In this document: in pieces, positions 5,104-64,000 of the stretch | Layout: each line of letters opens with the position of its first letter | Numbering within the stretch: position 1 is the first letter of the stretch | Origin: a virus | Virus record (IMG/VR): IMGVR_UViG_3300046513_000134 | Location: 36,507-100,506 of that record | Reading direction: 5' to 3' (one strand) | DNA length: 64,000 nt | Translations under genes and position numbers: made by a program | The notes under the pieces: model-generated | Told to the model about the DNA's origin: nothing | Seen by the model: the letters and a program-made list of their open reading frames with translations, nothing else | Database searches by the model: none

Positions 5104-5447
5104 GCTTCTTCTCCGCGACGGCTGAGTTGATTGTATCCGGCCAAGGTCGTCGCACCAATGACAGGAAACAGGTGGGGCAGTCTGCTTGGGTCCATTACCT
5201 CGTGGGGACGGAACAAGCTACCTTCAATCGTGATCGGGCGGGGAGTGTTGATCGTGTACCGGATGCCGTAGACGTGACCCGACCGATCGGCCAGATACTT
5301 CTTTTCGGCCCAGCCGAGATCGACCAGATGGCCCATGGCGTATCGCTCTTGCGAACCGCCGTAACTGAGAGACGCGAAGTCTAAAATCAATTCTGGTTCT
5401 TCCAGCATTTCGCGTCTGATTTGTGCAAGCACTTCATCTCTGACCAT
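5100..5447 (-). CDS. Hypothetical protein, 115 aa
   Basis: Begins MVRDEVLAQIRREMLEE, with GGAG 7 nt before the ATG. The mixed alpha/beta segment (GHLVDLGWAEKKYLADRSG, then IRYTINTPRPITIEG) hints at a small winged-helix-like fold, but no motif is decisive. It is the first gene after the promoter at 5501-5529 and overlaps its downstream neighbour by ATGA. Confidence 0.7.
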   Translation of the reverse strand: MVRDEVLAQIRREMLEEPELILDFASLSYGGSQERYAMGHLVDLGWAEKKYLADRSGHVYGIRYTINTPRPITIEGSLFRPHEVMDPSRLPHLFPVIGATTLAGYNQLSRRGEEA

Positions 5448-5500
5448 CTTCGATCTCCATGACGCACACTCCTTGTTCGCTCATGATTATCAGTATGTAG

Positions 5501-5529
5501 ATGGTAGGTTGTAGACAACTCGGTGTCAA
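5501..5529 (-). promoter_or_regulatory. Sigma70-like promoter after a terminator
   Basis: -35 TTGACA (5529-5524), 17-bp spacer, -10 TACCAT (5506-5501) on the minus strand. It begins 4 bp after the terminator T-tract at 5534-5540, so it probably restarts transcription for the 5447-to-3003 gene group. Confidence 0.55.
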
Positions 5530-5533
5530 ATAT

Positions 5534-5592
5534 AAAAAAACGCCTCCGTCCCGTTGGCTCACTCGACACAAGGTCAGGTGCGGGAGGAGGCG
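5534..5592 (-). terminator. Intrinsic terminator
   Basis: The minus-strand stem CGCCTCC/GGAGGCG is extended by TCCCG/CGGGA across one bulge, with a 25-nt loop, and is followed by seven T residues. It ends the transcript of the 398-aa acidic protein (stop at 5652). Confidence 0.8.
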
Positions 5593-5651
5593 TCTTTGGT
5601 CCCCGAAAGGAACAGTCTGGGTATAACGGGTCAGCTAAGTCCCGTCAACCC

Positions 5652-28900: not shown

Positions 28901-30379
28901 GCTGTCGGTCTCAAACAGTTCGGTCAGCACCGTCCACTTGGCCATGCGATGGGCCTGACCTCGCGAGGTGCAGCCGACCGCTTCGAACTTGGTGTCGCGG
29001 TAGCCGTATTTGGCGATCCCCTGCTCATTCTGGTAGCAGGCGTAGTCTTCCTTGTAGAAGTCGTCGGGGTTGAGGAACTTGGCGAAGGCCACCGTGTGCC
29101 GGCTCTTCAGCGACGTGCTCTGGCGCTCGAAGGTGCCGTCGATGACGTTCGCCGGGTTGGCCAGCACCGAGGGGTCCTTCGGGCGGTCTTGCGTGGCGAT
29201 GATGGCCCCGGATGACCAGTAGCTCATGCCACGGAAGCACGAGGCCATGGAAGCGAGAGTATCGTAGGCTTCGCGCTTGGTGGAGATGACACCGTTGAAG
29301 GTCATGCGCGGTTCGCTGCCGCCGACGCCGTTGGGGACGTACTCGTCGCAATACTTGGCGATCTCGTAGAGGCCCCACTTGTCTACCTGCGAGATGTCCA
29401 CGTAGTTGCCGAGCCCGTAGCGATCGTTGACGATCATGTCATAGAAGACCCACGCCGGGTTGTTGGTCCACTCCAGCTTGAACGTGCCGTTCCATACCCC
29501 CGTGTAGACGGGGTTGCGACTGATGTTGCCGTTCACGTCGTAGAGGCGGGTGGTGTAGTTCGTCGGCACCCTGATGATGACGCCGTCGATCAGGTACTTG
29601 CGCTCCGGGATCTGCTGGTTGAACTGTTCGCCGTCGATCACCATGCCGATATAGGCGGTGTTCGGGTAGGTGAACTTGGCTTCGACGATCCCCTCGAACG
29701 ACGAGAAGTAGGTCTGGTTCTGCAGCTTGATCTCGCCGCTGTCGGCGGTGAAGCGCGTGACCCGGATTTCCCACGGCGCGCTGGCACCCGAGGGGTTCAC
29801 GGGCAGCTTGAAATAGAACTGCTTGTCGTACGGGGAGACGCACTTGCCGGTGAGGGTAACGACCCCCGAGGACACCGACCACGGCCCGCCTACATAGCGG
29901 ATGTCGATCTGGAACTGCACCGTCGTGCCGTTGATGTTGCCCTTGTCGTCGGATTTCGACAGCGTCGGGATACGAATGGTGACGACGGTGGCGTCATAGT
30001 CGGGGTCGGTCAGCGACCGGGTCAGTGGCACGCCGTACTTGACTTCGGCACCGACGTTGGTGATGGCTTCGACGCCGGAGGCTCCCGGCATCACCGACTG
30101 GTCGGGGTAACCGGCCCTGAAGTCCCAGTTGACGCCCTTGAAGTTATAGTCGCCAGAGGCCGAGACCAGCGGCGTCTCGTTCAGGTAGATAGACTTCGCG
30201 CCGTTGACGAGACCCTTGATGACGCCCTCGCCCAGCATGTCGAGCAGGCGAACCGTGGCCTTCGACCGAAGAGTGTTGGCGCTCTCCTTGCCGCTGTCCC
30301 CTCCTGACCCGCTTTTCCCGCCACCGCCCTTGCGGCCGTTGATGATGAACTGTGGCATGTCTGGTGCGTGAACGTGCAT
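25976..30379 (-). CDS. J: Tail tip / host specificity protein (lambda gpJ-like)
   Basis: A 1467-aa protein. It has the canonical N-terminus (RSKATVRLLDMLGEGVIKGL), a Phage-tail_3-like core with GDIVAIQDPSQAG, FN3-like repeats (about 790-1030), and the C-terminal GYGVKR. Two apparent insertions stand out: a carbohydrate-binding-like beta domain at about 525-650 (NNGHFAKGLTGWTIT, typical of CBM4/9) and another at about 1100-1340. It forms the tip that contacts the receptor. The alternative start at 30358 lacks a better ribosome site. Confidence 0.9.
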   Translation of the reverse strand: MHVHAPDMPQFIINGRKGGGGKSGSGGDSGKESANTLRSKATVRLLDMLGEGVIKGLVNGAKSIYLNETPLVSASGDYNFKGVNWDFRAGYPDQSVMPGASGVEAITNVGAEVKYGVPLTRSLTDPDYDATVVTIRIPTLSKSDDKGNINGTTVQFQIDIRYVGGPWSVSSGVVTLTGKCVSPYDKQFYFKLPVNPSGASAPWEIRVTRFTADSGEIKLQNQTYFSSFEGIVEAKFTYPNTAYIGMVIDGEQFNQQIPERKYLIDGVIIRVPTNYTTRLYDVNGNISRNPVYTGVWNGTFKLEWTNNPAWVFYDMIVNDRYGLGNYVDISQVDKWGLYEIAKYCDEYVPNGVGGSEPRMTFNGVISTKREAYDTLASMASCFRGMSYWSSGAIIATQDRPKDPSVLANPANVIDGTFERQSTSLKSRHTVAFAKFLNPDDFYKEDYACYQNEQGIAKYGYRDTKFEAVGCTSRGQAHRMAKWTVLTELFETDSINYQAGLDHAGVRPGDIVAIQDPSQAGVEQSGRCSGDPQEFLNNGHFAKGLTGWTITAPAGTTATVTSGALNLTGNGTATVAADQSFKTVIGQTYILRFGVTNGAGCGVRIGVTQGGTTLHNTSYAATYTEVQFVATATTTWLRLWRSAAGTVIVDYASIKKLASTKSIIQIDEPITYEPGNLYWLYVTLPDGTVAESNVVIDTYGDPVSAITVSPAFAVAPDEQSTWVLSRSDLVPELGRVITIKESEPNKYDIMTLQYEPSKFAAVDVDAQFSLIDTSQIPSGPLGVPTAPLFNEYAYALGQTGTIMGLDWAVTAPKDPRIGQFEWQYQTRDAAGTLNAWQVAGYTYDPIITIQDLPGGTYNFRVRSVGAFGSGVSGWLVSTNVLLLGLQSPPATPDQFRISVLGEQSQFSWRIPNILNVSHVEIRHTPNVATPEWNGSVILVEHATGTGIQLPTMAGTFLIRSVSFVGTYSDGVAMVINTVTAAARNAVVDLIEAPTFSGAKGNSQVVLGDLQLTPFGGAFPGVGVYSFATVVDLGDEYTSRLTASIEVFGLDSRDTIDKWASLSTVDALSTASSDAWNFALEYATTLDSPTAVVTRTSTGTYFDADGILKTAAANAPRYNFNPADLLAAPVLLDEQAKTNYMLWSRDFTNAFWTKQSTTATFAVGTRKSVDGVTNMMEITESSTTNASKALYAANISRVSNIASCFSCVIDPEGRKLFQLFIWDEILSNQVAANFDLTDPNNPTVTFKTALGTATNGQCGVQKLGNGLFRCWVSGTPSPGGAANNTRVGVFPCAVANAQAYAGTVGLLACRLSDYQLETGLTPTSIIPTTTATVTRAAELITSQPTWSEWVPFITRDVNFRAIKFRAKLISYDPAVTPVLRTLNVTVDMPDRIIAGNDLVVPTGGLTVVFDPPFKGLTGLSMASQDMATGDRAAITAKSENGFTIRYYNSVGTAISRTFDYTAVGYGVKR
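28492..28507. repeat. Palindrome copy 8
   Basis: TTGCAACAAATTGCAC inside the tail-tip gene at the end of its first carbohydrate-binding-like insertion. Confidence 0.75.
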
Positions 30380-30386
30380 CGTGGGC

Positions 30387-31013
30387 TCACTTGCTCGACT
30401 GGTTGGGGATGGCGATATCGACGGTAGACATGCCGGCAGACATCAGGACGGAGCCGACCATAATCCGGCCGTAGGGGACGGGGACGCCGCCGCCCTGTTC
30501 GGTCACGTTCAACTGGCCGTCGATCATGAAGCTGTCGTCCTTCTTGTCGTCAGCCTTCTTGTTGCTGGTCAGCATCTGCGAGACACCGGCCGCGATCAAC
30601 CCGAGGCCAAGAACCGCGAGGTTGCCGTAGGTCATGCCGCCCAACCCAAAGGTCGAGGCCATGGTCGTAGCCCCGCCGAGAGCCATTGGCACGAAGAAGG
30701 CCGTGGCGAGCAGGAATACCCCGGCGATGATCTTGATCAGGCCGCCCTTCTTGTTGCCCTTCAGGATGGGCATGATGTGGATGTCGCCCTTCTTGCCGAG
30801 CATCAGGTGGACGTCGTCCTGCCCGAGCACCAGCCCCTGCGTCCGGTCCTTGCCCCAGACGACATGGAAATTGTGCTTCTCAAGGAATTCCCGGAAACCT
30901 TCCAGTTGCACGGATAGGGCGCGGACGGCTTCCCCGAGGGAGGCAACCTCCAGCAGGAACGACGCTCCGTATTTCTTCTTGGCGAGGCCGTAGAGGCGCA
31001 CAGTCCTAAGCAT
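30387..31013 (-). CDS. I: Tail assembly protein I (lambda gpI-like)
   Basis: A 208-aa protein with a ubiquitin-like N-terminus (MLRTVRLYGLAKKKYGASF, VASLGEAVRAL), a central hydrophobic stretch (LIKIIAGVFLLATAFFVP) and C-terminal VPVPYGRIMVGSVLMSAGMS. Both parts match phage lambda tail assembly I. It is between K and J homologues, the conserved place. One-base overlap with the K gene. Confidence 0.88.
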   Translation of the reverse strand: MLRTVRLYGLAKKKYGASFLLEVASLGEAVRALSVQLEGFREFLEKHNFHVVWGKDRTQGLVLGQDDVHLMLGKKGDIHIMPILKGNKKGGLIKIIAGVFLLATAFFVPMALGGATTMASTFGLGGMTYGNLAVLGLGLIAAGVSQMLTSNKKADDKKDDSFMIDGQLNVTEQGGGVPVPYGRIMVGSVLMSAGMSTVDIAIPNQSSK

Positions 31014-53226: not shown

Positions 53227-53994
53227 TCAGGCTTTGAAGATGTCGTGCCCGCCCAGTGGCGTGAACGTGGTTTCGGTCAGGAGCTTCTTCTTGGCCTTGG
53301 GCTTTGTCTTGGGGCTCTCGTCCCAGACGCTGCTGTAGTTCTTCTGGGGCTTACCCGTCTCGTAGTCCAAATGGATCGCGGTCGGGGGCAGGTTGCCGGT
53401 CTTGTAGCCAGCGGCCGGGAGGATGCCGAAGTGCTTCTTCAGGAACTCGACCTGCACGCCGCTCTCCACCGCCTTCTTGCAGTAGTTCTCGCGGACCCAG
53501 TTGATGGCGTCCTCGATCCCGAGGGCTTCCTTGACCACGGCGCAGATGAAGGTGCCGGTGCGCCCGTGCCCGCCGATGCAGCCGCAGTGAATGGTCTCGC
53601 CGGCCAGCAGTTGCGCTGCCGTCCATTGCACCAGCTTCTTGAACTCGGTGGCATTCGCCGGCGCTTGCATGTCGGTGATCTTGTGGTGGATGACGTGCGG
53701 CCGGTGCGCGGCGACCTCGTCGTTGGCATAGTCGTATTCGGGGATGTGCATGTTCCAGTCGAAGCCGATGAAGGCGAACGCCTCCTTGGCCACCGGGAAG
53801 CCGCAGGAGCCGCCGATCAGGGTACCAGTGCCGATGCTCAGGGCCGGATGGCTCTTGTAGCATCTCTCGCCGCTGATGTTCTTGTTCGCGCTGTCCAACA
53901 GGGGTACTCCTTCGACCGGTTTCACGTATTGCTTGGCACGGACGTCGGCCCGGTCGCCGTAGATGACATCATTGAGGGATTTATTGACGGGCAT
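53227..53994 (-). CDS. CX5R (dual-specificity/tyrosine) phosphatase-like protein 1
   Basis: A 255-aa protein. P-loop: IHCGCIGGHGRTGTF, with Cys139-x5-Arg145 then Thr-Gly, the signature of PTP/DSP enzymes. An Asp at about 108 (KITDMQAP) could be the general acid. C-terminal 60 residues are Lys-rich. It could remove phosphate from protein or other substrates in the infected cell. Upstream Asp-rich N-terminus and WPD loop position are approximate. Confidence 0.8.
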   Translation of the reverse strand: MPVNKSLNDVIYGDRADVRAKQYVKPVEGVPLLDSANKNISGERCYKSHPALSIGTGTLIGGSCGFPVAKEAFAFIGFDWNMHIPEYDYANDEVAAHRPHVIHHKITDMQAPANATEFKKLVQWTAAQLLAGETIHCGCIGGHGRTGTFICAVVKEALGIEDAINWVRENYCKKAVESGVQVEFLKKHFGILPAAGYKTGNLPPTAIHLDYETGKPQKNYSSVWDESPKTKPKAKKKLLTETTFTPLGGHDIFKA

Positions 53995-54008
53995 GTAGCA
54001 CTCCTTTG

Positions 54009-55103
54009 CTAATCAGCTCGGTTGATCTTTTTGACGAAGGTGTCGTTGTCCACCTGATAATGGTGAAGCAGGAACTCGGCCTCGTCCATGGCTTTCTTGG
54101 CGGCTAGCAGATCGGCCATGGCCTTCTTGGCTTTGGCTTGCTCGTAGGCCAGCTTCTCCGCTTCCCCCGACTTCGCGGTGGGGCCGTATTTCTCGACCTG
54201 CTTCTTCTGCCAGCTAGCGCAGTTGTTCACCGCGCCCAGCGCCTGTACCTCGTACCAGTCGATGTAGCGGCGCTCGAAGCATTCCGAATGGCGCTCCACG
54301 AATTCCTCGGTCAGAACCCGCATCTTCGGGGTGGTTCCCTGCTGGGTGACCGCGTGGCTCTCAAGGATGCCTTCAAGGATCATCCCGGCCCGCTGGACGT
54401 CGAGGACGCTCAGCAGGTAACCGGAGTAGCCGCTGTAGAGCATGCCCTTGTTGAAGATCGGCCCGTTGTTGTGGCTTAGCGTCCAGTTGGTGTCGAGCAT
54501 GATCTCCAGCGAGGTGCGGCCGTAGACGTAGCTCTCCAAGCAATCGGCCACGGCTCCCCACTTCGGCCCGCCATAGCCACTGGAGAACTTGTGCTCGTAG
54601 AAGAAGCGGCGGATCGCGGTGGCCAGTTGCCCGAGCGTCGCCTGTGGTGGGTCTGTCCAGAGCGACGAGTAGTTTTCCCCGCTCGCATATTGGCGCAGCC
54701 ATTTGACCACCGGGAAGCCGACCTCTTTGGCGATCAGATTGTCCTTGCTTTCATTGGTGAAGGTATGGCGGCTCTCGCGGATGACGATGACCAACAGGTA
54801 CATCGCGGCGCGGATCGCCTCGGACTGGGTCCAGTTAAGGTAGGCATCCATCGTCGCCAGATCATCGGCCGGCAACGGTTCGTTGCGATCGAACTTGGCC
54901 GACAGGACCGCGATCATCTGCTGGAACCCGTAAAAGGTCACCGCAGCTTCGTCGGGATTGGCGAGATCCTTGTTGTTGTGCTGGTTCATGTACGCCTTGA
55001 CCTGCGCTCCGACCGTGGCCAGAGGGGTAGCAGAGACGTCCAACGATTGCCGGATCGGGTGGATGCTGAGGTATCCGAGCGTGTGACGCGGGCTGACGGC
55101 CAT
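54009..55103 (-). CDS. Hypothetical protein between two phosphatases, 364 aa
   Basis: Start at 55103 (MAVSPRHTLGYLSIHP); a GTG at 55118 overlaps the only Shine-Dalgarno, so the true start is unsure. Mainly helical, with a coiled-coil-like Ala/Lys/Glu end (AKAKKAMADLLAAKKAMDEA). Cys pair and Trp-rich segments (RYIDWYEVQALGAVNNCASW). No family recognised. Confidence 0.7.
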   Translation of the reverse strand: MAVSPRHTLGYLSIHPIRQSLDVSATPLATVGAQVKAYMNQHNNKDLANPDEAAVTFYGFQQMIAVLSAKFDRNEPLPADDLATMDAYLNWTQSEAIRAAMYLLVIVIRESRHTFTNESKDNLIAKEVGFPVVKWLRQYASGENYSSLWTDPPQATLGQLATAIRRFFYEHKFSSGYGGPKWGAVADCLESYVYGRTSLEIMLDTNWTLSHNNGPIFNKGMLYSGYSGYLLSVLDVQRAGMILEGILESHAVTQQGTTPKMRVLTEEFVERHSECFERRYIDWYEVQALGAVNNCASWQKKQVEKYGPTAKSGEAEKLAYEQAKAKKAMADLLAAKKAMDEAEFLLHHYQVDNDTFVKKINRAD

Positions 55104-56363: not shown

Positions 56364-58475
56364 TCAATCGGCCAGCAGGGTAAACAAGACATGTTCAGGG
56401 TGGATATCTCTGGCAGCACCCTTGAGTTCTACCCCGGCCTTCTTCAGGGCGTTGAGGACGATGTCAGCGGTGGCAGCGCCCCCCATGACGTTTTCAATGA
56501 AGCCCTCGCTCATCGTCGCCGGCCCCGAGAGCAGGTCATTCAGGGTCTTGGCTTCCTTGACCACGATGAACCCGACCTTCTCCAAGGCGTCGAGAATATC
56601 CTCAGACCCCCGGGCGACGAGGATGGTGGTGGGGTCGAGGGTGCCCGACTTCACCTGTGCAATAAGTTGCAGCAGAACCTGATGGTAAGCCTGCTCCATC
56701 GGGTCGGTGCTGGAGAAGATCGTCCGCAACCCCTTGGTCTTGTAAATCTGCATCGGGTTGAGGTCGATCAGGACCGAGCGGTTCAGGGCCTGTGCGCCGA
56801 CGATGCAGAGCACGATGTCATCCGTGGCCACGCCCAGCATTACGTGCATGCCGACATTGACCGCGCAATACTGGGGCAGGGTGTTCTCGTCGGTCTCCAG
56901 CAGGTTGACCTGTTGGTAGGCATCCTCGGCTACGAGGTCGAGGAGCGTCTTCCGCTGTGACCCTGCCCCTTCGATCACTGGGACGTCCAAAGCGATCCAG
57001 ACGCGGCCTGTGGAGCCACAGATCGTGATCGAGACGTCCAGCCCATTCAGGTGGGGCAGCAGGTCGTGTCCGACACCACAGACGCAGGGCTTGTCCATCG
57101 CGCGGGCCACGACGGCGGCGTGTGAGGTCGAGCCCCCGGTGGCCGTCAGGATGCCAACTGCCGCGTTCATGCCGGCGATATCGTCCGGTGTCGTCTCGTG
57201 CGTAACCAGAATGACCTTGTCGCCCTTCTCAGCGGCGGCGACGGCGTCCTTGGACGAATACACCGCGTACCCGGTGGCGACGCCCGGCGAGGCGTTGATC
57301 CCCTTGAACTGCGGTTCCCCCTTGAAGGCCTGATCGACCGAGGGGCGCTTGGTGGTCTTGTACTGGCTGCGGGTGATCCGCCCGAACATCTGCTGGCGGG
57401 TGATATCCCCGGCTTGGAGCATGTCCGTGGCGATCCTGATCGCGGCCGCTGCCGAGCGCTTGCCGACGCGGCTCTGCAAGACGTAAAGCACCCCGTCCTG
57501 AACCGTGAACTCGATATCGACCATATCGTTGTAATGGTTTTCGAGAACGTTGCAGACATACTCCAGTTCGCCGTGAAGTTCGGCCCATGCCGGATCATTG
57601 CTATCCTTCATGGACTGGATCGGCTCTGGGGTCCGTATCCCGGCGACAACATCCTCGCCTTGGGCGTTGATCAGATATTCGCCATACATCCCCGGCTCGC
57701 CGGTCAGCGGGTTGGCTGTGAACAGCACCCCGGTGCCGGAGATATCGTTCATGTTGCCGAAGACCATCGCTTGTATCGTGACGGCGGTGCCGGTCACATG
57801 TTCCAGCTTGTTGATCTTGCGGTAGACCTTGGCGCGTTCCGAGTTCCATGACCGGAAGACCGCGTCGATCGCCACGAAGAGCTGGTCGTCCAGATTGGTA
57901 GGGAACTCGAAGCCCTTGTGGACCTTGAAGGTCTTCAGCATGCCGTCGCAGACGATCTTGAGATCTTCGACCGTCAGGTCGGTGTCGGCGTCGTAGCCCT
58001 TGTCTTCCTTGACCTGTTCCAGCGGCCCGTTCATCAGCTTCTCTTCCAGATCGTAGCCGGTGGTCGAGAGCATCAGGATCAGGCGGCGGTAGCTGTCCCA
58101 TGTGGCGCGTGCCCCGAGACGTTGTTCCCAATCACCGATATTGTGAAGGTTGAGGCCGACATTGAGGATGGTGTCCATCATCCCCGGCATTGAAACCGGA
58201 GCCCCGGAGCGAACCGACAGCAGCGGGTCGTAGCCGAAGTGGTCTTCCATCTTGTTGAGGTGCGGGGTGGCTTCGTAGACAATGTCGTTGACGAACTTGA
58301 CCTGCTTGGTCGTGGGCGACCAGTAGTTCTGGCACATCGAGATCGGGATGATGAAACCGGGAGGAACCGCCAGACCCATGTTGGTCATGAGGGACAGCGA
58401 TGCTGCCTTGCCCCCGACGATTTCCTTATCTGTGGGGACGTCTGTTTCCCCCGTGCCAAAGCTGTAGAATTCCAT
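56364..58475 (-). CDS. Pyruvate phosphate dikinase-like phosphotransferase with replaced C-terminus
   Basis: A 703-aa protein. N-terminal ATP-grasp nucleotide domain: VGGKAASLSLMTNMG, LLSVRSGAPVSMPGMMDTI, FTANPLTGEPGMYGEYL, DIEFTVQDGVLYVLQSR. Swivelling phosphohistidine domain: TGGSTSHAAVVARAMDKPC (His at about 450). The PEP/pyruvate TIM barrel that should follow is absent; about 220 residues of unrelated sequence replace it. It can probably be autophosphorylated at His, but the acceptor is unknown. Start at 58475 with CCACGGAGGGT. Confidence 0.85.
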   Translation of the reverse strand: MEFYSFGTGETDVPTDKEIVGGKAASLSLMTNMGLAVPPGFIIPISMCQNYWSPTTKQVKFVNDIVYEATPHLNKMEDHFGYDPLLSVRSGAPVSMPGMMDTILNVGLNLHNIGDWEQRLGARATWDSYRRLILMLSTTGYDLEEKLMNGPLEQVKEDKGYDADTDLTVEDLKIVCDGMLKTFKVHKGFEFPTNLDDQLFVAIDAVFRSWNSERAKVYRKINKLEHVTGTAVTIQAMVFGNMNDISGTGVLFTANPLTGEPGMYGEYLINAQGEDVVAGIRTPEPIQSMKDSNDPAWAELHGELEYVCNVLENHYNDMVDIEFTVQDGVLYVLQSRVGKRSAAAAIRIATDMLQAGDITRQQMFGRITRSQYKTTKRPSVDQAFKGEPQFKGINASPGVATGYAVYSSKDAVAAAEKGDKVILVTHETTPDDIAGMNAAVGILTATGGSTSHAAVVARAMDKPCVCGVGHDLLPHLNGLDVSITICGSTGRVWIALDVPVIEGAGSQRKTLLDLVAEDAYQQVNLLETDENTLPQYCAVNVGMHVMLGVATDDIVLCIVGAQALNRSVLIDLNPMQIYKTKGLRTIFSSTDPMEQAYHQVLLQLIAQVKSGTLDPTTILVARGSEDILDALEKVGFIVVKEAKTLNDLLSGPATMSEGFIENVMGGAATADIVLNALKKAGVELKGAARDIHPEHVLFTLLAD
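56657..56672. repeat. Palindrome copy 14
   Basis: GTGCAATAAGTTGCAG inside the PPDK-like gene, only 850 bp from copy 13, the closest pair. Confidence 0.75.
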
Positions 58476-58519
58476 GACATAACCCTCCGTGGAAATTGTC
58501 ATTCAGTAGATTGAATATA

Positions 58520-59076: not shown

Positions 59077-59249
59077 TAGAGTTCTGTAGCTCCCAAGCTG
59101 CGCGCCTCTTCTATCGCCTCACGCGGCGCGTCGGTGAGTTCGATGGTATCCCATGCACTCTCCACATAGGCGATACCCTCTCCCATGCAGAAGTCTTTGA
59201 ATTCCGACATGTTGGTGTCGGAGTAGAAACGAAGGCGAATGCGGCCCAT
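59076..59249 (-). CDS. Small hypothetical protein, 57 aa
   Basis: ATG at 59249 overlaps the terminase stop (TGATG) and the TAA overlaps the next start (TAATG), so coupling on both sides supports it. The product, MGRIRLRFYSDTNMSEFKD..., is mixed alpha/beta and acidic toward the end. Function unknown. Confidence 0.65.
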   Translation of the reverse strand: MGRIRLRFYSDTNMSEFKDFCMGEGIAYVESAWDTIELTDAPREAIEEARSLGATEL

Positions 59250-61246
59250 CAGGCTTTCTCCATCTGGCGCTTCTCGGTGTCGGAGACCGACCCCTTATGA
59301 TCCGGTTTCTTGGCCTGCAGCAAGCTCTTCGGAATGAGGCTGAGCGGAATGTTGTGCATAGACCAGATCTCCCGGCGCATGGTCAATCCGTAGATCACCC
59401 CGGCCATGGCGTCGGAGACGTCCTTCGAGCCCTTCGACGGGTGGTCGATCTTGTTCTTGGCGACGTTCTTCTCCAACCGCACCCATTCGCGCTTGGCGAC
59501 GTCATGCTCCGGGGTCAGGACGCGGGCGTCGTAGAACGCCAGCTTCGACACCTCGTAGGGGGCCATGTCGGTATCGACCGACTGGTAGCCACTCTTGTAG
59601 CCGAGCCGCATCAGCGTCTGCAGCGTGTCCTTCGATTGCATGCTGTCGAGGGTGATGTACTTGATCGGCAGGCCCATCTCCTTGAGCTTGTAGATCAGCT
59701 TGCGGACGTTGGCCAGTTCGATCTCGCCGCCCGGTGGGGGCTTGACCTCCAGCGTGAAATCGAAGTGCACCACCGGCAGCATCTCGACGTCCTCGCCGCG
59801 ATGGACCGGGACGAAGTGCGAGACGTAGCCACAGGCGACGCCCGTGCTGTCACCACTGATCGAGGGGTCGATATGTATCCACCGTGGCATATGCGTATTC
59901 AGGAACCGCTTCGGGTAGACCAGCAGCCCGTGCTTGTCGAAGTCGCACCAGTCGTTCGACAGGATCGACGGCACGGTATCGAAGCAGGAGGACAGCGCCT
60001 CGACGTTCATGATGAACGGGTGCATCGCGAGGGTCGAGTGGCCGGCGATGTCGCGGATGTTGTTGAAGATGTCTTCCTCGAACTTCTTCAGGTATTCCTG
60101 CGGCACCTTCATCACCAGCTTCTGGTCGGCCCCGCTGAAGTGCTCGCTCTCGCCGTCCTTGAGGATGCGCGGCTTGCGGTTCTCGTCACCGAGGAACAGG
60201 TCGAACCACAGGCCGGTGAATTTCTCGATCGGCTTCACCTCCCACGAACGCTTGTCGTAGACGAAGATCACCGTCTTGCCGAGGGTGTCGAGTTCGACCT
60301 GCGCCTGCTGCATCTTCACGTCGGTGAATTCGCCGGGGTAGCGTTTCGAGGAGACGAGGCAGAGCAGGCCGGGCAGCTTGCCTTGGTTCATGAAGCGGCT
60401 TTCGCGGCGGCGGGCGATCGAGTTGTAGATGGCCACGGCCTGATCGTAGGTGCCGCCGTCCTCTCCGGCCTTCTTGGACTTCTCGGTGACTTCCATGAAG
60501 TTCACTTCGTCAATCAGCCCGCCGAAGACGTTCTGGCCGATGGCGGCTGTGGCGTCGCCGGAGAGCGGCTTGACGATGATGTTGTTGGGGAACCGCATTT
60601 CCGAGGTCAGGCCCCGGTCATACTGGAAATAGGTGCAGAAGAACGGGCTGGCGTCGAGCATCGATTTGAAGCGGTTGTAATCGACCGCCTTCGACAGTTC
60701 CTTCTTCATCGACTGGAAGATGAACATGATTTCCGAGGAGGCAGCCAGATCGAACGACTTGTGCGGCTTGGCCATGCAGGCCAGTTCGTAGATCGTGTAG
60801 GCGATGGCCACGAGGGCGCAGGTGGTCTTGCCGGTGCCGATGCCTCCGGTGAAGATCGCCTCGTCGTAGTCGCCGGTCAGCAGCTCCTCGATCTCGACCA
60901 TGTTCAGGGGCCAGATTTCCTCGCCCATGTTGAGGTACTTCTTCGAATGCACGAAGGTCCACGGATCGACCGGCAGGAACCGCCATTCGACGCCGGCCTG
61001 TGCCTTCTTCTTCAGCCACGCGGTGGCCTTCAGCAGGTACTTGGCGCGTTCGATCAGATCGGGGATGGTGTTGGCATGTTCCCAGATATGCTGGCCCGAC
61101 ATGCCGCACTTCTGCAAGACGTTAATGCTGGTACGGAAGATGGCCTCAAGGCTGGTGCTCGATGACGAGGTTGGGGTCGAGGCCGTCGAGGAGGTCGAAG
61201 AGCTTTGCGGTTTCTTCGGTCCACTCGAAAGACGTAGCTTGGCCAT
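59249..61246 (-). CDS. terL: Terminase large subunit
   Basis: A 665-aa protein. ATPase domain: Walker A FTGGIGTGKTTC (about 140), Walker B GGLIDEVNF. Nuclease domain: HIDPSISGDSTGVACGYV, YITLDSMQSKD and SDAMAGVIYGL (acidic triad). Length fits family. It packages DNA with the portal. ATG at 61246 is preferred over 61252 because GGTGG lies 6 nt upstream. Overlaps the small subunit by 101 bp. Confidence 0.93.
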   Translation of the reverse strand: MAKLRLSSGPKKPQSSSTSSTASTPTSSSSTSLEAIFRTSINVLQKCGMSGQHIWEHANTIPDLIERAKYLLKATAWLKKKAQAGVEWRFLPVDPWTFVHSKKYLNMGEEIWPLNMVEIEELLTGDYDEAIFTGGIGTGKTTCALVAIAYTIYELACMAKPHKSFDLAASSEIMFIFQSMKKELSKAVDYNRFKSMLDASPFFCTYFQYDRGLTSEMRFPNNIIVKPLSGDATAAIGQNVFGGLIDEVNFMEVTEKSKKAGEDGGTYDQAVAIYNSIARRRESRFMNQGKLPGLLCLVSSKRYPGEFTDVKMQQAQVELDTLGKTVIFVYDKRSWEVKPIEKFTGLWFDLFLGDENRKPRILKDGESEHFSGADQKLVMKVPQEYLKKFEEDIFNNIRDIAGHSTLAMHPFIMNVEALSSCFDTVPSILSNDWCDFDKHGLLVYPKRFLNTHMPRWIHIDPSISGDSTGVACGYVSHFVPVHRGEDVEMLPVVHFDFTLEVKPPPGGEIELANVRKLIYKLKEMGLPIKYITLDSMQSKDTLQTLMRLGYKSGYQSVDTDMAPYEVSKLAFYDARVLTPEHDVAKREWVRLEKNVAKNKIDHPSKGSKDVSDAMAGVIYGLTMRREIWSMHNIPLSLIPKSLLQAKKPDHKGSVSDTEKRQMEKA

Positions 61247-61730
61247 TATCATCCACCATAGTTCCAGAGACGGTCTTCGGAGCGCGGCGCAGGGCTCCTG
61301 TTTCCAATTGCAGATTGCCGAGAGCGACGAGGTTTTCCTTCAGCAGCTTGATCTCTTCCGAGGCCTGCTTCAGCACCATGTGCTCGTTCTTGTTTTCAGT
61401 CAGCAGGATCTTGTCCACGCGTGCCCGCTGCAGCACACAGAGGTCGTTGAGTTCGTGCATGGCGTTGAGCTTGCGGGAGAGCACGGGCGAGGACATGCCC
61501 TTGGTGGCGTCGAGGACCAGCGCCCGGGTCTTCTCCAGCAGGTCGGAGGACTTGTAGCGTTCCAGCATCTTCTTCAGGCTGTCAGGCTTCTTGTCAGTCA
61601 GGTGCCCGTCGCCCTGTAGCCAACCAACCACCTCTCGGGCAGGGGTGCCGGCGTTCAACCTTGTGTCCACCTCTTCCTGCACCTCGGTGGGCAGGGAGCG
61701 CAATTCGGAAAAGCGTCCGTCTCTGGCCAT
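61146..61730 (-). CDS. terS: Terminase small subunit-like (Mu gp27/DUF3486 type)
   Basis: A 194-aa protein beginning MARDGRFSELRSLPTEVQEE, then VDTRLNAGTPAREVVGWLQG, an HTH-like segment seen in DUF3486 small terminases. A helical body (LNDLCVLQRARVDKILLTEN, ASEEIKLLKENLVALG) would form the oligomer. Directly upstream of the large subunit. Confidence 0.75.
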   Translation of the reverse strand: MARDGRFSELRSLPTEVQEEVDTRLNAGTPAREVVGWLQGDGHLTDKKPDSLKKMLERYKSSDLLEKTRALVLDATKGMSSPVLSRKLNAMHELNDLCVLQRARVDKILLTENKNEHMVLKQASEEIKLLKENLVALGNLQLETGALRRAPKTVSGTMVDDNGQATSFEWTEETAKLFDLLDGLDPNLVIEHQP

Positions 61731-61891
61731 CAGTGCACCTCACGCAGAGCGTATTCCTTGGCCTCGACCAGATACTCTTCAAGGTCATAGCCGCAGCGTT
61801 GAAATTCGAGGATTGCCTTGGCCCGTTCGAGGTTGTCATCGCAGCCCCATTCGTCCAGCGCGTCTAGGAAATGTGCCAGCTTCTCCTCCAT
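61730..61891 (-). CDS. Small hypothetical protein, 53 aa
   Basis: Start at 61891 (MEEKLAHFLDALDEWGCDDN) overlaps the ParB stop as TAATG, with GGAGAG 9 nt upstream. Helical and acidic. Overlaps terS by one base. Function unknown. Confidence 0.65.
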   Translation of the reverse strand: MEEKLAHFLDALDEWGCDDNLERAKAILEFQRCGYDLEEYLVEAKEYALREVH

Positions 61892-62754
61892 TACTTGACG
61901 CTCTCCAGATCGCCCAGCACCTGCTTGGTGGGAGGCAGTTTCAGCTTCAGCAGCTTCTTGATCGGGAGGGCTGCCGGGATCGTGGCCTTGACCGCTGCCG
62001 CCAGTGTCGGCGTCTCGCCCTGTGCAATTTGTTGCAATATCGAACCGAGCACGTCGTCCATGGTACGGTCCTGCTGGATACACATGTCACCGAGGACGTC
62101 GAGGGCCTTGTAGGTCTTGTTGCCGATCTGTATCCACACCTGCTTCTGCGAGGCGTAGTCGAACACCATGAAGCCGTAGGGGGCGGTGTCGCCGTACTTG
62201 TTGAAGATGTGGTTGAGCAGCTTGGAGAGGCCGTCCACGGTGCGGATTTCCTTGGCCGCTTCCTTGAACTTCTCCTTCATCAGCGGCGTCGGCAGGCTCT
62301 TGGCCGACTGCTCGACCATCTTGTTGTACTGCGCTTCGTCGGAGAAACCGAAGGCGTCCTGCAGGATGTCGTCGCCGTATTTGGCCTGTACCTTCTCCCA
62401 CATGGTGAAGAACGCGGCCGGGTCCATCTGACCCTTGATCATGTTCATTCTGACGATCTGAAAGGTCTCGGCGTCTTCATCGAAATCATCGTGGTCGATG
62501 ACGCAGACGGGGACCTTGTCGAAGCCGAGATACTGGGCGGCGTCGTATCTGTGGTGGCCCCCGACGATCCGGTACTTGCCGGCGTCGATCGGTCGGACGA
62601 GGATGGCGTCGGTCATCCCGGTCTTTTCGAGGTTATCGCAGAGCAGGTCGAACTGCTTCGAGGACATTTTGTTGGGGTTGGCGGTGTTCTTCACCAGCAG
62701 CCCGATATCGCAGTCGAACCGCTGCAAATGCTTTGTTTTTGAGATTGCGTTCAA
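61891..62754 (-). CDS. ParB/Spo0J-like nuclease-fold (ParB-N domain) protein
   Basis: A 287-aa protein. ParB N-terminal domain: CDIGLLVKNTANPNKMS, FDLLCDNLEKTGMTDAILVR, YRIVGGHHRYDAAQYLGF (GxxRxxA-type CTP/phosphate box). A helical middle and C-terminal KLLKLKLPPTK follow; no clear HTH. TTG start at 62754 with AGGAG 8 nt upstream. It could be a DNA-segregation-like, regulatory or packaging-associated protein. It contains a copy of the palindrome at 62022-62037. Confidence 0.8.
   Translation of the reverse strand: MNAISKTKHLQRFDCDIGLLVKNTANPNKMSSKQFDLLCDNLEKTGMTDAILVRPIDAGKYRIVGGHHRYDAAQYLGFDKVPVCVIDHDDFDEDAETFQIVRMNMIKGQMDPAAFFTMWEKVQAKYGDDILQDAFGFSDEAQYNKMVEQSAKSLPTPLMKEKFKEAAKEIRTVDGLSKLLNHIFNKYGDTAPYGFMVFDYASQKQVWIQIGNKTYKALDVLGDMCIQQDRTMDDVLGSILQQIAQGETPTLAAAVKATIPAALPIKKLLKLKLPPTKQVLGDLESVK
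62022..62037. repeat. Palindrome copy 15
   Basis: GTGCAATTTGTTGCAA inside the ParB-like gene, near its 3' end. Confidence 0.75.
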
Positions 62755-62833: not shown

Positions 62834-62868
62834 GAAAAAGGCCCACAGGTCACAACTCCCGGGGCCTT
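62834..62868 (-). terminator. Intrinsic terminator of the structured RNA
   Basis: Minus-strand stem AAGGCCC/GGGCCTT with a 17-nt loop, followed by TTTTTC. It ends the RNA starting near 63126, 80 bp before the ParB start; readthrough would be needed to reach parB. Confidence 0.8.
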
Positions 62869-63126
62869 ATCCACATGCTTGGTACGGTTAGTCGCCGCCG
62901 ACGACTGGCCTTGGAAATCGATGGTCGGAATGTGCAGATGCCGACGTTTCTTTCTGCAAGGGACGACATCTCCGATGGAAAGCCCAGCTTTCAAGTCTCG
63001 CCTGCGTACTCCAAAGGAGCGACGTAAGTTACTGCCTGTATCTGGAGGAGGCTGCCTATGGGAATTTCTCCCGGCCGGTTAGCAGCATTCCTTCGAGTTC
63101 CACCGCCCGTTCCATCGGAGGTGTCG
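62834..63126 (-). ncRNA. Candidate structured non-coding RNA (about 290 nt)
   Basis: This 400-bp gap has no supportable gene. From the predicted start the RNA begins with a 17-nt strand (63126-63110) that pairs with 62980-62964, 16 of 17 bases. Inside it are GCTGC/GCAGC enclosing GGGA/TCCC, CTCC/GGAG and CTCG/CGAG pairings. After it, GCAGA(62957-62953)-GTCGG(62945-62941)-TCTGC(62938-62934)-CCGAC(62928-62924) forms an H-type pseudoknot with plausible loops, then a hairpin AGTCG/CGACT (62906-62890), then the terminator. No tRNA, tmRNA or known riboswitch pattern was recognised. Confidence 0.6.
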
Positions 63127-63132
63127 AGGATT

Positions 63133-63161
63133 GATATACGGTCCCCACTTTTCCTTGTCAA
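63133..63161 (-). promoter_or_regulatory. Strong sigma70-like promoter
   Basis: -35 TTGACA (63161-63156), 17-bp spacer, -10 TATATC (63138-63133) on the minus strand, the best promoter in the window. The predicted start near 63126-63125 coincides with the first base of the long stem of the downstream RNA. The upstream gene ends inside the -35 (TGA at 63160-63158). Confidence 0.75.
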
Positions 63162-64000
63162 CGGGTAAAAATGCCGGGTTCCAAAGTATCTTTCCAACCA
63201 CATTGGTTGAGATGCCACTTCAGCAAGTAGAGGATCGGCCGGTTGCCAATCGGGGTGCCGCGCCACGTCTCCGGCTTCTGGAACATGTCGAAGGTCTCCT
63301 GCCACAGCTTCAGGGCGTCGATCTTCTTGACCTTGTCCTTGATGCAGGCGTCGGTCAGGGCCTTGGCCTGTTCGCGCATGCTGCCCTGTCTCTCGGCCCC
63401 GTGGGTCCATTCCTTCAGCCGGGCGAAGTGTTCGGCCATCAGCCCCTGTACCGCCTCGGTGGTGGACTGATTGCGCGGCCCCTCCACGAAGTCCTTCCAG
63501 TAGGTCGCCTCCCACTGCAGGAAGCGCGCATACATGCCCTCGTAGTCGTCGGCAAAGGCGCGGATCATCGCGTAGCTCTCGGTCATCGAATTGGTGATGA
63601 ACGGGTAGTCCTTGCCGACGAAGTTGGCCCATGCCTTGTCGGGCAGGATCACCGGCACGCCGTGCACCAGCGGCTCGTAGGTGGACATCGAGAAGTCTTC
63701 CACCTTGGAGATGTTGATGGCGACGTGGGCGTCGTTCTCCAGCAGGTCATGGAATTGCTGGCGGTTGTTCTTCATCACCTTAACGAAGTCGAAATCTTCC
63801 CCGGCATTTGTGCCGAGCGAGTGGGTGGACACCATGTAATTTATCGGCACGCCCTTTTTGTGTAGCCCCGAGCCAGCGAACCCTTTCTGGAACAGTTCGA
63901 CCACGTCCTGAAAGTTCCTCACGGACGTCGTACGCCCGGCAAACAGTACGTTCAGCCCCTTGGATACATCTTTTGCGTTGTTCGAGAGCCGCGTCAATTT
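63158..64000 (-). CDS. Glycosyltransferase-like protein (GT-B; partial)
   Basis: At least 279 residues, cut by the right edge. LNVLFAGRTTSVRNFQDVVE, then DAHVAINISKVEDFSMSTYE followed by PLVHGVPVILPD, which is the GT4-type nucleotide-sugar end of a GT-B fold. It may modify phage DNA, virion or host surface sugars; no choice is possible from this fragment. The true start is outside the window. Confidence 0.75.
   Translation of the reverse strand, partial: KLTRLSNNAKDVSKGLNVLFAGRTTSVRNFQDVVELFQKGFAGSGLHKKGVPINYMVSTHSLGTNAGEDFDFVKVMKNNRQQFHDLLENDAHVAINISKVEDFSMSTYEPLVHGVPVILPDKAWANFVGKDYPFITNSMTESYAMIRAFADDYEGMYARFLQWEATYWKDFVEGPRNQSTTEAVQGLMAEHFARLKEWTHGAERQGSMREQAKALTDACIKDKVKKIDALKLWQETFDMFQKPETWRGTPIGNRPILYLLKWHLNQCGWKDTLEPGIFTR

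What the first reader, a model, noticed from the sequence alone, without database searches (positions are those of the whole stretch)
62834..63161. Orphan structured RNA with its own strong promoter and terminator
The only gene-free stretch over 300 bp has TTGACA-17-TATATC, then a 17-bp stem (16 paired) whose first base is at the predicted start, several internal hairpins, an H-type pseudoknot arrangement (GCAGA/GTCGG/TCTGC/CCGAC) and a T-run terminator. This is the design of a stable non-coding RNA, or of a large leader controlling readthrough into parB and terminase. It matches no RNA class I recognise. A packaging-RNA or riboswitch-like role are hypotheses.
Basis: partly seen in the sequence, partly recalled or inferred. 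Interest (0 to 1): 0.86.

Follow-up and report, generated by a model that had tools for sequence, protein, structure and literature searches.

The report
Conserved orphan structured RNA in rhizobiophages
Four related Rhizobium-type phages keep, just before their DNA-packaging genes, a roughly 290-380 base RNA gene with its own start and stop signals, and evolution has preserved its folded shape even where nearly every letter has changed, so it is very probably a real new phage RNA whose job is still unknown.

Summary
On the minus strand, window 63161-62834 is a complete RNA transcription unit: TTGACA-17-TATATC, start near 63126, a 17-column stem (16 paired), an H-type pseudoknot and an intrinsic terminator. 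Single-sequence energy for the whole unit is unremarkable (z -1.1), but comparative evidence is strong.

Three other phages (RHph_TM16, RHph_Y1_11, IMG/VR contig 3300037420_000928) carry the unit at the same glycosyltransferase/parB junction. Each has TTGACA with a 17-nt spacer, a 16-17-column closing stem starting at the predicted transcript start, and a terminator. In the stem 61 of 64 cells pair and 12 of 16 pairs show two-sided changes. A covariance model from window+TM16 alone ranks the syntenic site first in both diverged phages. Each four-arm domain folds better than its shuffles. Outgroups with the same gene order (RcZahn, Delepquintavirus, others) lack the unit. No Rfam family matches.

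Best reading: an autonomous, highly structured phage ncRNA made by host sigma-70 RNA polymerase, insulated from the packaging operon, acting in trans. Main rival: an elaborate leader controlling readthrough into parB-terminase. A phi29-type packaging RNA is unlikely. Function is inferred, and no transcript data were available. It is a new RNA family of a known kind (orphan phage ncRNAs such as T4 C/D and PAK_P3 sRNAs).

The parts
63133..63161 (-). sigma-70-type promoter TTGACA-N17-TATATC (-35 63161-63156, -10 63138-63133)
   Evidence: Sequence. TTGACA and the 17-nt spacer are invariant in all four homologues, -10 being TATATC/TATACC/TATTCA/TATACC. In TM16 the flanking DNA has a 24-nt insertion yet TTGACA is kept.
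62834..63126 (-). predicted ncRNA, about 290 nt, predicted start C63126 to end of terminator U-run
   Evidence: Homologous unit in TM16, Y1_11 and IMG/VR 3300037420_000928. 82% identity to TM16 over 280 aligned bases against 64-74% at fourfold-degenerate sites of the flanking genes.
63110..63126 (-). P1, 5' arm of the long closing stem
   Evidence: 17 columns, 16 paired here. Across four phages 61 of 64 cells are paired and 12 of 16 pairs have two-sided changes.
62964..62980 (-). P1, 3' arm of the long closing stem
   Evidence: As above; shuffle and background tests.
63094..63109 (-). P2 hairpin of the junction domain
   Evidence: 15 of 16 cells paired, 2 of 4 pairs with two-sided changes. Present in the independent MFE folds of TM16, Y1_11 and L005.
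63046..63092 (-). P3 arm (GGA/TCC base, GCUGCU/GGCAGC helix, apical hairpin 63072-63060)
   Evidence: P3b: 24 of 24 cells paired, 6 of 6 pairs with two-sided changes. In the window the common fold costs 3 kcal/mol over its MFE.
62984..63045 (-). P4 arm, base CCAG/CUGG, apical part variable
   Evidence: A helix lies at this place in all four; its alignment is ambiguous, so it was not counted.
62924..62958 (-). H-type pseudoknot: P5 62958-62953 with 62938-62933; P6 62945-62941 with 62928-62924
   Evidence: P6 GTCGG/CCGAC in the window, ATCGG/CCGAT in TM16 (compensatory). P5 is conserved in sequence in TM16 and Y1_11 and replaced by another helix in L005. P6 is only 4 bp and ambiguous in Y1_11 and L005.
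62890..62906 (-). P7 hairpin with GCGGCG-type loop
   Evidence: Hairpin in window and TM16 with different stem; loop region TCACGCGGCGG shared by TM16 and Y1_11.
62879..62886 (-). conserved linker CGTACCAA just before the terminator
   Evidence: Identical in window, TM16 and Y1_11 although the surroundings diverge; mostly unpaired in the window.
62835..62868 (-). intrinsic terminator, GGCC-rich hairpin and U5
   Evidence: Terminator with changed arms kept in all four.
63158..64000 (-). upstream gene: glycosyltransferase (context)
   Evidence: Homologues annotated glycosyltransferase; PHROG 30253.
61891..62754 (-). downstream gene: ParB-like nuclease (context)
   Evidence: Pfam PF02195, PHROG 26387.
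59249..61252 (-). TerL, packaging operon downstream (context)
   Evidence: PHROG 2 and annotated homologues.

Best explanation
An autonomous, stable, structured non-coding RNA gene of a small clade of Rhizobium-type phages. Shown by comparison: a promoter-to-terminator unit; a four-arm domain (P1 closing stem, P2, P3, P4) whose 5' end is locked in P1; a following pseudoknot; an intrinsic terminator; selection on the fold. Inferred: host sigma-70 RNA polymerase makes the RNA from soon after infection. The P1 stem at the extreme 5' end and the terminator hairpin at the 3' end protect it from 5'- and 3'-end decay. The compact domain acts in trans, by binding a protein or RNA. The terminator insulates the unit from the packaging operon behind it.
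For: Four homologues at one syntenic place. P1 has 61 of 64 cells paired and 12 of 16 pairs with two-sided changes; sliding the partner drops pairing to 18-32 of about 58. A CM from window+TM16 only finds the Y1_11 site as top hit (17.9 bits, E 0.0019) and the L005 site as the best hit in its locus (12.7 bits, E 0.039), and nothing else in 600 kb of relatives. The domain is more stable than shuffles in all four (z -3.4, -4.0, -4.35, -2.1). TTGACA, the 17-nt spacer and the P1 start near +1 are kept in all four. RNA positions are more conserved than fourfold sites. G-U pairs in P1 and P3 favour a minus-strand RNA over a DNA structure. In L005 a tRNA-Ala sits inside the unit between P1 and the pseudoknot; normal tRNA processing would cut the P1-P4 domain free of the terminator, which suits a free-standing RNA. 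The same phage has a second promoter-RNA-terminator unit followed by its own downstream promoter.
Against: No transcript, half-life or phenotype data. Only four homologues, all at the same site, so a cis role cannot be separated from a trans role by synteny. No convincing -35 is seen for a separate parB promoter in this clade, although several outgroups without the RNA have a TTG-N17 promoter-like element there (by eye). No conserved target or partner was found.
Confidence: 0.55

Rival explanations
1. A regulated leader of the packaging operon. Transcription from the strong promoter stops at the terminator early; later a phage factor, or the RNA fold itself, lets polymerase read through into parB-terS-terL, as at the lambda late promoter with Q.
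For: The unit lies directly upstream of parB-TerL on the same strand, in a genome whose annotated genes (TM16) all run one way. The clade lacks an obvious separate -35 before parB, whereas several RNA-less outgroups have a promoter-like element there.
Against: No conserved alternative (antiterminator) pairing of the terminator arm. A tRNA inside the unit in L005 would sever fold from terminator. Lambda-type leaders do not need a conserved four-arm fold (own knowledge). TM16 has a second inverted repeat between unit and parB (by eye).
Confidence: 0.28
2. A packaging (prohead) RNA working like phi29 pRNA as part of the terminase motor.
For: Next to terminase genes; 5' and 3' ends of the main domain paired.
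Against: Phages with homologous TerL (46-50% identity) and the same gene order have no such RNA at this site, and the CM finds none in 600 kb of relatives' packaging loci. No Rfam pRNA match.
Confidence: 0.03
3. The conserved element works as DNA (origin, pac/cos site, protein-binding inverted repeat), the promoter and terminator being incidental.
For: ParB-like gene and terminase next door; P1 is also an inverted repeat in DNA, and the opposite strand matches the model through P1.
Against: Arm sequences turn over completely while pairing persists, with G-U pairs that would be A-C mismatches on the other strand. TTGACA-17 and terminator are conserved with it. P3 and pseudoknot changes fit an RNA.
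Confidence: 0.07
4. Only a terminator/insulator region with fortuitous folding.
For: Whole-unit MFE is not exceptional (z -1.1).
Against: Covariation, CM transfer and slower evolution than fourfold sites.
Confidence: 0.04

Closest known systems
Phage T4 band C and D RNAs; Pseudomonas phage PAK_P3 sRNA1/sRNA2 (PMC4933390)
   Same: Abundant orphan small RNAs of virulent phages. PAK_P3 sRNA2 lies between tRNAs, as part of this unit does in L005. Functions unknown (PMC4933390).
   Different: PAK_P3 RNAs are about 100 nt and shown by RNA-seq; this one is about 290-380 nt with a four-arm domain and pseudoknot, not yet shown to be expressed. No sequence relation was tested directly.
phi29 prohead RNA (pRNA)
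   Same: Phage RNA with a paired-ends domain, encoded in a phage genome; here next to packaging genes.
   Different: No Rfam match, and relatives with homologous terminase lack it.
lambda pR' leader (6S RNA) / tR' late-gene antitermination
   Same: sigma-70 promoter, short RNA, intrinsic terminator directly before late genes on the same strand.
   Different: Conserved elaborate fold; no Q-type factor or binding element identified here.
GOLLD / ROOL / OLE large ornate RNAs (PMC12286853)
   Same: Large structured RNAs of unknown role; GOLLD and ROOL often in phages near tRNA genes (own knowledge).
   Different: Smaller and no covariance-model match in Rfam 15.

Membership tests
any Rfam 15 family | covariance-model score above gathering cut-off | tested here: not met
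   0 hits in 64 kb at gathering. At relaxed E only chance-level hits for the window, TM16 and Y1_11; in L005 only the inserted tRNA is significant.
phi29-type packaging RNA | matches the pRNA covariance model | tested here: not met
phi29-type packaging RNA | present wherever the cognate motor is present | tested here: not met
   RcZahn, DLP3, DLP5, Summit and several IMG/VR relatives with homologous parB have coding sequence or a short gap instead; CM negative over 46 loci apart from the clade.
phi29-type packaging RNA | bound to the prohead portal and needed for packaging | not testable with these tools
   Needs virions and mutants.
lambda-type late leader with antitermination | promoter and intrinsic terminator directly upstream of late operon | tested here: met
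lambda-type late leader with antitermination | regulated readthrough by an antiterminator | not testable with these tools
   Needs a time course; no antiterminator gene was sought systematically.
riboswitch / attenuator | conserved mutually exclusive antiterminator pairing | tested here: not met
   Terminator 5' arm pairs with different upstream segments in each homologue, mostly 4-bp partners.
tmRNA or tRNA | ARAGORN or Rfam match within the unit | tested here: not met
   No match in window, TM16 or Y1_11; L005 has a separate inserted tRNA-Ala.
orphan phage ncRNA (kind, not a homologous family) | own promoter and terminator, no ORF, conserved structure | tested here: met
orphan phage ncRNA (kind, not a homologous family) | discrete transcript during infection | not testable with these tools
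   No RNA-seq available.

The most novel reading that the evidence does not exclude
A new class of phage RNA whose four-arm domain is a free-standing scaffold or decoy, released in one lineage from its terminator module by an embedded tRNA, that binds a host or phage protein (for example RNA polymerase, an RNase or a defence component) to shape infection.
Probability: 0.2. Interest if true: 0.8.

Novelty: new variant of a known kind. Interest (0 to 1): 0.52.

Why it matters
Functions of structured RNAs from virulent phages are almost entirely unknown (PMC4933390 notes T4 C/D RNAs have lacked one since the 1970s). This is a compact, well-delimited family with covariation support. Two isolated phages, RHph_TM16 and RHph_Y1_11, are on record with named Rhizobium hosts (R693, Y1_11), so expression and deletion experiments can be done directly.

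Tried and rejected
Rfam at gathering and relaxed thresholds: no match beyond the inserted tRNA. MFE z-score of the whole window unit: not significant, so single-sequence stability was not used as proof. Exact motif scans of viral contigs found only the known L005 contig or nothing; the one genome-contig hit (L090, a deltaproteobacterial MAG) is at chance level and was not pursued. Plasmids: only 31-bp chance matches for the window RNA, none for TM16. Profile searches with TerL, ParB and the glycosyltransferase gave many packaging loci but no further carrier of the RNA. Automatic MAFFT alignment of all four misaligned P1, so the four-way pair counts use a hand structural alignment; the independent support is CM transfer and the shuffle tests. 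Antiterminator pairing and linker-complement target search: nothing conserved. tmRNA: rejected by ARAGORN and Rfam.

Full report
What is there. The window is the last 64 kb of a 100,506-base virus record (G000). In TM16 every annotated gene of the first 100 kb lies on one strand; here that is the minus strand. At the junction between a glycosyltransferase gene and a parB-TerS-like-TerL block lies the reported element. Reading the minus strand: TTGACA (63161-63156), 17 nt, TATATC (63138-63133), predicted start C63126, a 17-column stem (63126-63110 with 62980-62964, 16 paired) that closes a 163-nt domain, an H-type pseudoknot (62958-62924), a hairpin (62906-62890), a linker CGTACCAA (62886-62879) and a terminator (62868-62835). 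Annotation of the homologues offers only a 39-codon hypothetical ORF overlapping the TM16 terminator, which is not seen in Y1_11.

Is it more than chance? From this one sequence, only partly: the full unit folds no better than shuffles (z -1.1), though the domain closed by the stem does (z -3.4, 0 of 200). The decisive evidence is comparative. Rhizobium phage RHph_TM16 has the unit at 77% identity. RHph_Y1_11 and IMG/VR contig 3300037420_000928 (L005) have it at the same gene junction with little sequence left. In all four the -35 is TTGACA and the spacer 17 nt, and a terminator follows. In Y1_11 and L005 a 17-bp and a 16-bp uninterrupted stem begins 6-7 nt after the -10; only 1 of 2000 shuffles reached that in each. 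These are the only helices of 15 bp or more with that spacing in 12 and 14 kb. The domain is more stable than shuffles in TM16 (z -4.0), Y1_11 (z -4.35) and L005 (z -2.1) as well.

A common fold. Independent MFE folds of TM16, Y1_11 and L005 give the same layout: P1 closing a junction with P2, P3 (with an apical hairpin) and P4. In the window that fold lies 3 kcal/mol above its MFE. In a hand structural alignment P1 has 61 of 64 cells paired and 12 of 16 pairs with two-sided changes; P3b has 24 of 24 and 6 of 6; P2 has 15 of 16 and 2 of 4; sliding partners in P1 by 1-2 columns roughly halves the pairing or worse. Because that alignment was fitted by eye, I rely more on a blind test. A covariance model built only from window and TM16, run without filters over both strands of the two diverged loci, puts the syntenic site first in Y1_11 (17.9 bits, E 0.0019) and first in L005 (12.7 bits, E 0.039; next best in that locus 9.5 bits). 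The same model finds no other site in 600 kb of relatives or elsewhere in G000 or TM16. The pseudoknot is well supported between window and TM16 (GTCGG/CCGAC against ATCGG/CCGAT). In Y1_11 and L005 the first stem is clear but the second is only 4 bp and ambiguous. Window-TM16 identity in the RNA is 82%, against 64-74% at fourfold sites of the flanking genes. G-U pairs point to a minus-strand RNA rather than a DNA structure.

Distribution. The nearest outgroups have the same glycosyltransferase/parB/TerL order but no such unit. RcZahn and the Stenotrophomonas Delepquintavirus phages have a small ORF there; soil contigs have a dUTPase/dCTP-deaminase-like gene, a methyltransferase, another gene or a short gap (gene names by eye from the translations). 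So the unit is an accessory RNA gene of one clade, not a part of the packaging motor of this TerL family. In L005 a tRNA-Ala (TGC) gene (51.3 bits to the Rfam tRNA model) is embedded between P1 and the pseudoknot; its presence suggests the P1-P4 domain and the pseudoknot-terminator module can be separated.

How it probably works. Shown: a promoter-to-terminator unit with a selected RNA fold. Inferred: host sigma-70 polymerase makes it early (TTGACA-17-TAT fits the rhizobial sigma-70 consensus, own knowledge); pairing of the very 5' end and the terminator give stability; the domain acts in trans; the terminator insulates it from the packaging genes. Support for insulation as a theme: the same genome has a second, shorter promoter-RNA-terminator unit followed at once by a second promoter (window about 5649-5447). 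Against full confidence: the parB-proximal promoter of this clade has no clear -35, unlike several outgroups, so a leader role in which the packaging operon depends on readthrough remains a serious rival (about 0.28). No conserved antiterminator pairing was found.

Compared with what is known. It is not a member of any Rfam family. It works, if the best reading is right, like the orphan RNAs of virulent phages (T4 C and D; PAK_P3 sRNA1/2, PMC4933390), but with its own architecture. It resembles a lambda late leader in position only, and fails the tested expectations of a phi29-type pRNA. The literature search found the phage clade mentioned (RHph_TM16 as capsid relative of RcZahn, PMC8601537) but found no description of the RNA.

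Verdict. A real, previously unnamed RNA family with strong comparative support, few members and unknown function: interesting to phage-RNA specialists and directly testable in cultured phages, but no surprising mechanism is shown.

Noticed in passing
window 5447-5651 (minus strand): A second orphan unit: TTGACG-17-TATACC promoter, about 90-nt RNA ending in a strong hairpin with T-run, then immediately TTGACA-17-TACCAT promoter for the next gene. 78% identical in RHph_TM16 30347-30554, where it folds far better than mononucleotide shuffles (z -4.6).
   Followed up: partly
window 56364-58502 (minus strand): PPDK-like protein matching residues about 7-474 of pyruvate phosphate dikinases only; no PEP/pyruvate-barrel match in its C-terminal 230 residues. 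PPDK-annotated genes sit at the same place in TM16, Y1_11 and RcZahn. Possibly a dikinase with another acceptor domain.
   Followed up: no
L005 4369-4444: tRNA-Ala (TGC) embedded inside the RNA transcription unit, with C instead of U by eye at position 33 of the anticodon loop; TM16 has a possible tRNA remnant on the opposite strand between unit and parB.
   Followed up: partly
RHph_TM16 53711-54186 (L101 3711-4186); G000 coding 82219-82696, outside the window: Conserved non-coding stretch with 5-6 copies of GTAGATGTTTA(A/T)T, an iteron-like array that could be a replication origin or operator cluster.
   Followed up: no
L098 8649-8719 (minus): G000 carries one tRNA-Ser(TGA) where TM16 carries a tRNA-Thr(TGT), 71 nt each, in an otherwise conserved early-region gap.
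   Followed up: no
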